Assembly: GCF_000455365.1 (NCBI RefSeq)
Contig: NZ_HG315686.1
Span: 259,288 to 318,526 of the forward strand
DNA length: 59,239 nucleotides
DNA from: Halopiger djelfimassiliensis
GTDB lineage: Archaea; Halobacteriota; Halobacteria; Halobacteriales; Natrialbaceae
Direction of reading: 5' to 3'
Shown here piece after piece: positions 10,673 to 13,825 of the stretch; within the stretch, counting starts at the first letter, position 1, and each line of letters begins with the position of its first letter. The position numbers and the translations under genes are program-made. Below the pieces are notes generated by a model. The model saw nothing but the letters and a program-made list of their open reading frames with translations. It ran no database searches and was not told the origin of the DNA.

Positions 10673-10979
10673 ACTGTTCGATAGGGAAGGACGGGGAATC
10701 GTCTGTCCCTCTTCGTTCGTGCTCGAGAACCGGGTGGCGTCGAGATGGCCGGGCTTTCGAGGAGTCGGCCGCCCCGTCCTCGAGCGCAGCCGAGTCGCTA
10801 CTCGAACGGTTGCGTGTTGGGGGCTCGCCCTCTCGGTCGTTTCACGTCCGGAACTGGTTGGTTCCAATACTGATAACCGATTCTAATAAGAACGGGTTAG
10901 AACCATCTTTAATCAGCGAGGGAACCCCGGCCTTTAGGCCGGGTGGGGAATCGCGTCACTTGACTACGCTGTCCACCGC

Positions 10980-11117
10980 TCAATCGGCACTGCCGGAATC
11001 CAACTCCTTCTGGGCGTGGAGTAGCATCCCCCGCCACGTCAGCCCGTGGCGCTTCTTTGTCTCTTTCAGGCTCTCGTACTGCGATTCGTCCTCGAACTCT
11101 ATCTTGACGTACTTCAT
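10980..11117 (-). CDS. Small RHH-like protein divergent from tnpB
   Basis: A 45-residue protein (MKYVKIEFEDESQYESLKET... to DSGSAD) with an initial short beta-type stretch followed by two helices and the motif KKRHGLTWRGMLLHAQKELD, the plan of ribbon-helix-helix DNA-binding proteins. It starts 28 bases from the tnpB ATG on the opposite strand, within the element, so it may repress tnpB or its guide RNA from the shared promoter region. Too short for certainty, but the reading frame is clean and codon use is haloarchaeal. Confidence 0.6.
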   Translation of the reverse strand: MKYVKIEFEDESQYESLKETKKRHGLTWRGMLLHAQKELDSGSAD

Positions 11118-11144
11118 GTATGGTGTTACACTAAAGTTACGTTT

Positions 11145-12407
11145 ATGTGTGTCGGTCGCCTACCGGGTAGTGTGTCCGAGACGGTAACGAAAACGCTACA
11201 GGCCACGCTCGCAACGCCCACCGCGGGCAAAGAGCAACGCCTCCAGTGGCTCTTGGACACCTACCGCGACGCACTCCACGACGCCTTCGACGACGAGGCC
11301 GACACGATGGCCGCCGTCAACGACATCGTGACGCCCTACGACCTGCCCTACCAGGCCAAGGACGCGCTCAAGTCCTACGTCCCCAAACTCCGCGACACGT
11401 ACGACGCCGAGGAGTTGGACGACGAGCATCCGGTTCGGCTGGTCAATCGGGCGGCCAAGTTCGACTACTCCGACGAGCGCGACTACGGCTTCGTGTGGCA
11501 GGTCCCGCAACCCGGACGCGGGACGAACTTCTGGATTCCGCTACGGATTAACCCCGAACAGGAATCGCTCTGGTTCGGCCTGCTTGACGAGGACGTGACG
11601 GCCGGCGAACTGCGCCTCCAGAGACACCGCACGTCGTGGGAGTTGCACGTCACCGTCGAATACCCGGTCGAAGAACCGACCGAATCGGACGACGAGACGT
11701 ACATCGGCTTCGACGTAGGCGAGAGCGCGTTGATAACGGGCTGTGCCCTCAAACGCGACGTACCACGGAAGCCGATGCTCATCAGTGGCAGTCGAGCGCG
11801 ACACCTCCGCAAAGAGATGCACACCACGCTCCAACGGCTCCAAGAGCGTGACGCCGCCGAGTGGCGTGTGGACGAACGATTCGACCACTACCAGAACGCC
11901 CTGACGGATATTGTCGAGAAGGCGTCTCGGCAAGCCGTTGAGTACGCTCGTTCCTTCGAGACTCCGGTTATCGTTCTCGAAGACCTGTCGTACATCCGCG
12001 AGCATCTCGACTACGGCAAGTGGATGAACAGGCGGCTTCACAACTGGGCGTTCGCCCGTGTTCACGCTCGAATCGAAGACAAGGCCACCGAGGCAGGGAT
12101 TCGCGTCGAGTACGTCAACGCGGCGTACACCTCGCAGACGTGCCACGCTTGCGGCCGTCTCGGTCGGCGGACCGAACAAGCGGAGTTCGTGTGTCCACAC
12201 GACGACTGCCACGTAACAGAGTTCCAAGCAGACATCAACGCGGCGGTGAATATCGCTCGTCGCGCTAACCCGTGGGGAGAGAGCGTCCGTTGGGAACCCG
12301 GCCGCGATGACTCGCCACGGGATGGGAGCGCCCGTGACAGCGCCACAGTCCACCGTGAGACGAGCGAGAAATCCTCGCAGATGACGCTCGCGGCCTACAC
12401 GGACTGA
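11145..12407 (+). CDS. tnpB: RNA-guided endonuclease TnpB family protein
   Basis: A 420-residue protein from the ATG at 11145; a GTG at 11172 (VSETVTKTLQATLATP) is the alternative and better matches the usual N-terminus. RuvC-like catalytic residues are present: Asp190 in IGFDVGES, Glu279 in VLEDLS and Asp363 in QADINAAVN. A zinc ribbon (CHACG and CPHDDC) lies between the last two. In this family the protein cuts DNA under guidance of an RNA from the element's right end. All three acidic residues are intact, so it may be active; Asp in GFDVG rather than GVDLG is a mild variant. Confidence 0.92.
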   Translation: MCVGRLPGSVSETVTKTLQATLATPTAGKEQRLQWLLDTYRDALHDAFDDEADTMAAVNDIVTPYDLPYQAKDALKSYVPKLRDTYDAEELDDEHPVRLVNRAAKFDYSDERDYGFVWQVPQPGRGTNFWIPLRINPEQESLWFGLLDEDVTAGELRLQRHRTSWELHVTVEYPVEEPTESDDETYIGFDVGESALITGCALKRDVPRKPMLISGSRARHLRKEMHTTLQRLQERDAAEWRVDERFDHYQNALTDIVEKASRQAVEYARSFETPVIVLEDLSYIREHLDYGKWMNRRLHNWAFARVHARIEDKATEAGIRVEYVNAAYTSQTCHACGRLGRRTEQAEFVCPHDDCHVTEFQADINAAVNIARRANPWGESVRWEPGRDDSPRDGSARDSATVHRETSEKSSQMTLAAYTD

Positions 12408-12420
12408 AACCTGCCAGCCC

Positions 12421-12470
12421 GGATTCCCCTCGTAGGGGAAGCCCCGCCGTTCGTGGCGGGGAGGATGTCA
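12421..12470 (+). ncRNA. Putative omega/reRNA scaffold at the TnpB element right end
   Basis: Two adjacent hairpins (12424-12440, 12442-12461) ending in GATGTCA just after tnpB match the usual place and shape of the guide-RNA scaffold of TnpB. The bases after 12470, which are the 5' part of the subtilase gene, would serve as the guide segment. The RNA's 5' limit, probably inside tnpB, cannot be set by eye. Confidence 0.5.
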
Positions 12471-12595
12471 CGAGACGGAGAACGTTCATCAGGACTGGCG
12501 CGAGTATCGGCGTCCCTGCTCTCGGCGCTCTCACCACGGCGTCGACGGCATCAGCGCGGGCGGAAGCGAGTGCGACGGCCGCCACCGATCGGTTC

Positions 12596-13825
12596 GTGGT
12601 CGACACGGCGTCGGTCGATGGCGGCGACATCGAGGTCCTCCACCGTCTCGAACCGGTCGATCTGGCGGTGGTCCGCGGACGCGAACGCGATGTCGAGGCG
12701 CTGCACGCGTCGTTCGCTCGCGACGTCGAATGCCGACTCGAGATGCCGACCGAACAGCGATCGCTCGCGACCGATCCGGGAACGAACGGCTCCGACACGG
12801 CCGAGTCGTTGTACGAATACCAGTGGGACAAGCAAGACCAGGGAATCCGTGACGTCCACGAGTCGTATACGCGCGGCGAGGGCACCCGGGTTGCCGTCAT
12901 CGATGGCGGGGTCGCGGCGACCCACCCGGCGCTCGAACACGCGGTCGACGAGGACCTGTCGAAGAACTTCACCGAGGACGAGTACGGCGTGCCCGGCCCG
13001 TACGCCGGCGGACACGGGACACACGTCGCGGGAATCGTAGCCGCCTCCGACGACGGGAACGGTCGCGTCGTCGGGACGGCACCCGACGCCGAGATCGTCG
13101 ACTGCCGCGTGTTCTCGCCGATCCACGACCCGGACCAGTTCGTGTTCCTCGGGGACGTCCTCGCTGCGATCGTTCACTGTGTCGAACACGACGTGGACGT
13201 CGCGAACCTGAGTCTCGGCGCGTACCTCCGCCGCCGCGAGGAGGGCGTCGGACGGTTTTGGGGGCGGTCGATCCAGCGGACGACCACGTACGCAACCCGT
13301 GAGGGCGTGGTCCTGACCCACGCCTGTGGGAACTGGGGCGGAGATCTCACGAAGAACAAGGACTACGTCGACACCAGCATGAGCGCGGGCGGACTCACGG
13401 TAAGCGCCACGGGACCGGTCGGCTACATGTGGGGCAACGACGGACTCGAGGAGCCGGTTTACCGCCCGGCCTCCTATACGAACTACGGCGTTTCCGCCGT
13501 CGATCTCGCCGCGCCGGGTGGGGATTCCGTAGCCGATGATCACCAGTCCGACATGGTTCTCAACTGCCTCGCTGAACCCGAATTCGACGACGACGGAACG
13601 TATCTGGGTGCGAGCTACGAGTACGGGTATCTGGCCGGCACATCGATGGCATCGCCACAGGCTGCCGGCGCGGCCGCACTGATCCGAAGCGTCGCCCCCG
13701 GATCGAACGCGAATCAGGTGAAAAACACCCTCCAGCGAACCGCGACGGTTCCGACGGAATACGGAAAACAGTACTACGGCTCCGGCTACCTCGATACGCT
13801 GGCTGCAGTCGAGTCGGTCCGCTAG
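12596..13825 (+). CDS. Subtilase (halolysin-like S8 peptidase), 5' end lost to TnpB element
   Basis: A 409-residue S8 serine protease from the GTG at 12596. Catalytic residues are intact: Asp103 (VAVIDGGV), His about 140 (GGHGTHVAG), Ser350 (LAGTSMASPQ), plus oxyanion Asn in ACGNWGG. Upstream in the same frame without a stop, 12471-12595 encodes RRRTFIRTGASIGVPALG and an Ala-rich stretch, a clear Tat signal peptide, but no start codon precedes it: the frame runs into the TnpB element's right end. The gene has thus lost its first few codons and promoter. Translation from GTG 12596 would give a protease without export signal; it may be a pseudogene. Confidence 0.8.
   Translation: MVDTASVDGGDIEVLHRLEPVDLAVVRGRERDVEALHASFARDVECRLEMPTEQRSLATDPGTNGSDTAESLYEYQWDKQDQGIRDVHESYTRGEGTRVAVIDGGVAATHPALEHAVDEDLSKNFTEDEYGVPGPYAGGHGTHVAGIVAASDDGNGRVVGTAPDAEIVDCRVFSPIHDPDQFVFLGDVLAAIVHCVEHDVDVANLSLGAYLRRREEGVGRFWGRSIQRTTTYATREGVVLTHACGNWGGDLTKNKDYVDTSMSAGGLTVSATGPVGYMWGNDGLEEPVYRPASYTNYGVSAVDLAAPGGDSVADDHQSDMVLNCLAEPEFDDDGTYLGASYEYGYLAGTSMASPQAAGAAALIRSVAPGSNANQVKNTLQRTATVPTEYGKQYYGSGYLDTLAAVESVR

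What the first reader, a model, noticed from the sequence alone, without database searches (positions are those of the whole stretch)
10911..13825. TnpB element has decapitated a Tat-exported subtilase
The in-frame sequence directly after the element's right end encodes RRRTFIRTGASIG, a Tat signal, but no start codon lies between it and the element. All catalytic residues of the subtilase survive. The insertion is recent enough that the body is undecayed. The element's predicted guide would match this very gene's 5' end.
Basis: partly seen in the sequence, partly recalled or inferred. Interest (0 to 1): 0.62.

Follow-up and report, generated by a model that had tools for sequence, protein, structure and literature searches.

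The report
TnpB element splits subtilase start codon
In this salt-loving archaeon a small RNA-guided mobile element has landed inside the first codon (AT|G) of an exported protease gene, probably silencing it; it is an ordinary kind of insertion, here resolved to the base by comparison with empty sites.

Summary
A 1,565-bp tnpB-only IS200/IS605 (IS1341-type) element occupies 10907-12471. It begins CTTTAA after the target motif CCAT (10903-10906) and ends GGAGGATGTCAC. Empty alleles of three related insertions show the same boundary with no target duplication. Applied here, the flanks read CCAT|GAGACGGAGA, so the uninterrupted gene began ATG AGA CGG AGA, i.e. MRRRTFIRTGASIG. The element sits inside the start codon itself. 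Homologues in the family start the same way (MRRRTLLRR, MDRRTFIT). The frame stays open back into the element but has no ATG, GTG or TTG before GTG 12596, past the Tat signal. The protease body is complete (Asp145, His182, Asn288, Ser392; 66 of 68 family-invariant columns), and TnpB keeps its D-E-D residues. That the guide matches the gene is true by construction. Most likely this is a recent, precise knock-out kept by ordinary TnpB retention; loss of function is inferred. A second start-codon split, before a cupin ORF in two other species, has an in-frame GTG in the element that could rescue it; no such codon exists here. New member of a known kind; modest interest.

The parts
10903..10906 (+). 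Target (transposon-associated) motif CCAT; its AT is the first two bases of the original start codon
   Evidence: C-[C/T]-A-[T/C] precedes 33 related left ends, flanks otherwise random; empty alleles of three sister insertions
10907..12471 (+). tnpB-only IS200/IS605 (IS1341-type) element, 1,565 bp, from CTTTAATCAGCG to GGAGGATGTCAC
   Evidence: Both ends conserved in copies of other genomes; gap-free empty alleles of sister copies
10980..11117 (-). 45-codon antisense ORF in the left end (MKYVKIEFEDESQYESLKETKKRHGLTWRGMLLHAQKELDSGSAD), conserved in related elements
   Evidence: tblastn, 44-95% identity in many copies; no Pfam or NCBIfam match
11172..12407 (+). tnpB, RNA-guided endonuclease, 411 aa, RuvC residues D181, E270, D354 and zinc-ribbon cysteines present; the start codon GTG 11172 is the likely one
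   Evidence: NF040570 guided_TnpB above cut-off; structure-sequence match; residues
12362..12471 (+). Predicted omega-RNA scaffold (3' end of tnpB plus right-end hairpins)
   Evidence: Weak HgcC-like match 12362-12483, below the gathering score, same at 8 of 14 related loci; fold
12472..12491 (+). Predicted guide segment, identical with the 5' end of the subtilase gene by construction; length about 20 assumed from ISDra2
   Evidence: Position relative to the right end; principle from PMC8612924
12472..13825 (+). Subtilase gene body; base 12472 is the G of the split start codon; Tat signal RRRTFIRTG follows; Asp145 at 12902, His182 at 13013, Asn288 at 13331, Ser392 at 13643
12404..12406 (+). 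CTG overlapping the tnpB stop (CTGA), in frame with the subtilase: only conceivable reinitiation site before the Tat motif
12596..12598 (+). First in-frame GTG of the subtilase; would give 410 codons without Tat signal

Best explanation
A tnpB-only IS200/IS605 (IS1341-type) element, probably moved in trans by a Y1 transposase, inserted 3' of a CCAT motif that overlapped the start codon (CC-AT|G) of a Tat-exported subtilase gene. It separated AT from G without losing or duplicating a base. The body has no usable start codon in front of its signal peptide, so the exported protease is most likely not made. The insertion is recent enough that the body has not decayed. TnpB with its right-end RNA, whose guide is now this gene's 5' end, would cut an empty allele and restore the element by recombination: the standard retention function, not regulation of the gene. 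Shown: boundaries, split codon, absence of starts, intact body, intact TnpB active site. Inferred: trans mobilisation, guide RNA, loss of expression, retention activity, recency.
For: Ends conserved over many copies. Three sister insertions align without a gap to empty alleles with the junction after CAT. The same rule here gives ATGAGACGGAGA = MRRRTFIRTGASIG, matching the starts of homologues such as MRRRTLLRR and MDRRTFIT. No in-frame ATG, GTG or TTG before the Tat motif. Catalytic residues and 66 of 68 invariant columns kept. One Y1 transposase elsewhere in the genome.
Against: No empty allele of this very locus was found; no other strain of the species is held. No expression data. A cupin gene split in the same way in two other species shows purifying-like divergence (dN 0.017, dS 0.19), so a split start need not kill a gene. 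The promoter of the original gene was not identified.
Confidence: 0.85

Rival explanations
1. The gene is still expressed. A transcript from the element reads through the right end, and ribosomes reinitiate at the CTG overlapping the tnpB stop (CTGA, 12404), adding 23 residues in front of the Tat motif.
For: The frame is open from CTG 12404 into the Tat motif. Bodies remain intact. In L097 and L098 a related split start has an in-frame GTG in the right end and a conserved ORF.
Against: CTG is rarely used as a start (general knowledge); the GTG of the cupin cases does not exist here.
Confidence: 0.08
2. A truncated cytoplasmic product is made from GTG 12596, without signal and with a shortened pro-region.
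For: In-frame GTG with 410 codons.
Against: It lacks export and part of the pro-region; no promoter identified.
Confidence: 0.05
3. The element is a domesticated regulator of the subtilase, like nuclease-dead TldR proteins.
For: The guide equals the gene's 5' end; TnpB-derived regulators of other genes exist (TldR, PMC13418256).
Against: RuvC residues are intact, and the pairing with the subtilase is not conserved.
Confidence: 0.02

Closest known systems
IS200/IS605 family, IS1341-type tnpB-only elements of haloarchaea with sotRNA/omega-RNA
   Same: Intact TnpB, no own TnpA, hairpins at the right end, insertion 3' of a fixed short motif without duplication
   Different: Target motif here is CYAT, against TTGAT in ISDra2 and TTAC in IS608 (PMC8612924); an extra conserved antisense ORF in the left end
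Tat-exported S8 subtilases of haloarchaea
   Same: Twin-arginine start, pro-region, S8 domain; homologues about 55% identical in the family
   Different: This copy has its start codon split by the element
HgcC RNA (Rfam RF00062)
   Same: Right-end hairpins and GGAGGAxGTCA match; HgcC transcripts of Thermococcus lie in sense within transposase genes (PMC4247193)
   Different: Score below the curated cut-off

Membership tests
IS200/IS605 TnpB element (IS1341 type) | TnpB with RuvC D-E-D and zinc ribbon | tested here: met
IS200/IS605 TnpB element (IS1341 type) | No own tnpA in the element | tested here: met
   ORFs of 10907-12471; only Y1 match in the genome is on contig C5
IS200/IS605 TnpB element (IS1341 type) | Insertion 3' of a fixed motif, no target duplication | tested here: met
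   33 left ends; three empty alleles without gap, on sister copies and not on this locus
IS200/IS605 TnpB element (IS1341 type) | Guide RNA made and directing cleavage | not testable with these tools
   Only weak HgcC-like similarity
Tat-exported S8 subtilase | S8 domain with Asp, His, Asn, Ser | tested here: met
Tat-exported S8 subtilase | Twin-arginine signal at a functional start | tested here: not met
   Motif present, start codon split; flanks join to MRRRTFIRTG
TldR (nuclease-dead TnpB regulator) | RuvC residues lost and conserved pairing with the regulated gene | tested here: not met
   Residues intact; no conserved pairing

The most novel reading that the evidence does not exclude
Because IS200/IS605 excision is scarless and the CYAT motif can overlap start codons (CY-AT|G), such insertions could act as reversible, TnpB-locked off-switches. 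In polyploid haloarchaea TnpB would convert all chromosome copies, and excision would restore the exact ATG. The subtilase here and the cupin gene in two other species would be two instances.
Probability: 0.07. Interest if true: 0.55.

Novelty: new member of a known kind. Interest (0 to 1): 0.24.

Why it matters
It is a base-exact example of a TnpB element interrupting a start codon, and it fixes the target motif of a haloarchaeal IS1341-type group (CYAT) by empty alleles, so the predicted guide and target can be tested directly. If the insertion proved reversible, it would be a clean natural assay of TnpB retention in a polyploid archaeon. Otherwise it is a routine gene disruption.

Tried and rejected
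Boundary one base further in (motif CCATC): rejected, because it breaks the joined frame of sister insertions L078 and L046 and disagrees with the empty alleles. Rescue by the ATG inside the right end (GGAGGATG): rejected, it is out of frame with the subtilase. A lost 5' fragment upstream of the element: rejected, the flanks join to a complete start. Other genomic targets of the guide: nearest non-self match of motif plus 13 guide bases has 2 mismatches, one in the motif. Enrichment of insertions at start codons: 8 of 28 sites have G after the motif, about chance, and few are real starts. Rfam at its gathering threshold found nothing. The sigma-70 type promoter scan does not apply to archaea.

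Full report
Observation. The window lies in a haloarchaeal genome (G000, contig C3). The subtilase frame is open from 12359 to its stop at 13825 and contains no ATG, GTG or TTG before GTG 12596; the peptide after the element reads TRRRTFIRTGASIGVPALG.

Boundaries. The left end aligns with copies in many genomes of the same family. Over 33 left ends the bases before CTTTAA(A)CAGCG are C-[C/T]-A-[T/C] and those further out are random. The right end of close copies always stops at GGAGGATGTCAC and then diverges. To decide whether the C after CCAT belongs to the element, I joined the flanks of sister insertions and looked for empty alleles in congeneric genomes. Three independent insertions have them (L078 with L105 at 97%, L079 with L107, L046 with L111), all without a gap at the junction after CAT. 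Joined flanks also restore a membrane-protein frame (NVVPLVSTIYG) in L078 and a methyltransferase-like motif (LLDMGAGAGRD) in L046, read by eye. The element in the window is therefore 10907-12471, next to CCAT at 10903-10906.

What was hit. By that rule the uninterrupted sequence is TTAGAACC-AT|G-AGA-CGG-AGA-ACG, which encodes MRRRTFIRTGASIGVPALG. Homologues about 55% identical start at the equivalent place: MRRRTLLRRTG, MDRRTFITASG, MNRRTFITAG, MKRRTFITASG. The element sits inside the start codon, and nothing else is lost.

State of the two genes. The subtilase keeps Asp145, His182, Asn288 and Ser392 and 66 of 68 columns that are invariant in 29 homologues; two deviations are no more than intact homologues show. 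There are 133 single-base routes to a stop codon and none has been taken, so neutral divergence since insertion is small, though this gives no date. TnpB is full length with D181, E270 and D354. The only Y1 transposase found in the genome is on another contig, as expected for an IS1341-type element moved in trans (inference).

Guide. The guide of a TnpB element is the flank 3' of its right end (PMC8612924), so its match to this gene follows from the insertion and is no extra evidence. The present locus is not itself a target, because the element separates motif from target; an empty allele would be. No site in the own genome matches motif plus the first 13 guide bases with fewer than 2 mismatches. 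TnpB-driven conversion of element-free copies has been reported for multicopy plasmids (PMC11870625, a preprint); haloarchaea are polyploid (general knowledge), so the same could have fixed this insertion (inference).

Could the gene still work? The ATG in the right end is out of frame. A CTG overlapping the tnpB stop is in frame. In two other species (L097, L098) a related element splits a start codon in the same way (CTAT|G) before a cupin-like ORF (named by eye); there an in-frame GTG lies in the right end, and the ORF differs with dN 0.017 and dS 0.19, compatible with continued function if the insertion predates the species split. That GTG does not exist here, so a null is more likely. Element-next-to-subtilase was not seen in the other genomes.

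Verdict. Confirmed and sharpened: a precise start-codon split by an ordinary TnpB element. Gene loss, guide activity and retention are inferred. Interest is modest.

Noticed in passing
window 10980-11117 (-): A 45-codon ORF antisense to tnpB in the left end is conserved (44-95% identity) in many related elements and matches no Pfam or NCBIfam family.
   Followed up: partly
window 12362-12483 (+); also L003, L079, L080, L082, L085, L088, L092, L094: The right end resembles Rfam HgcC (RF00062) below its cut-off, at the same place in 8 of 14 related loci; some Thermococcus HgcC RNAs lie in sense in transposase genes (PMC4247193), so HgcC may be an archaeal TnpB guide RNA.
   Followed up: partly
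L097 and L098, right flank of the element: In two species a related TnpB element splits the start codon (CTAT|G) of a cupin-like ORF; the element's right end offers an in-frame GTG, and the ORF is conserved.
   Followed up: partly
G000:C2:213168-213396 (L002) and G000:C1:218096-218129 (L003): A degraded fragment of a close tnpB (86% over 229 bp) and a further right end lie elsewhere in the same genome.
   Followed up: no
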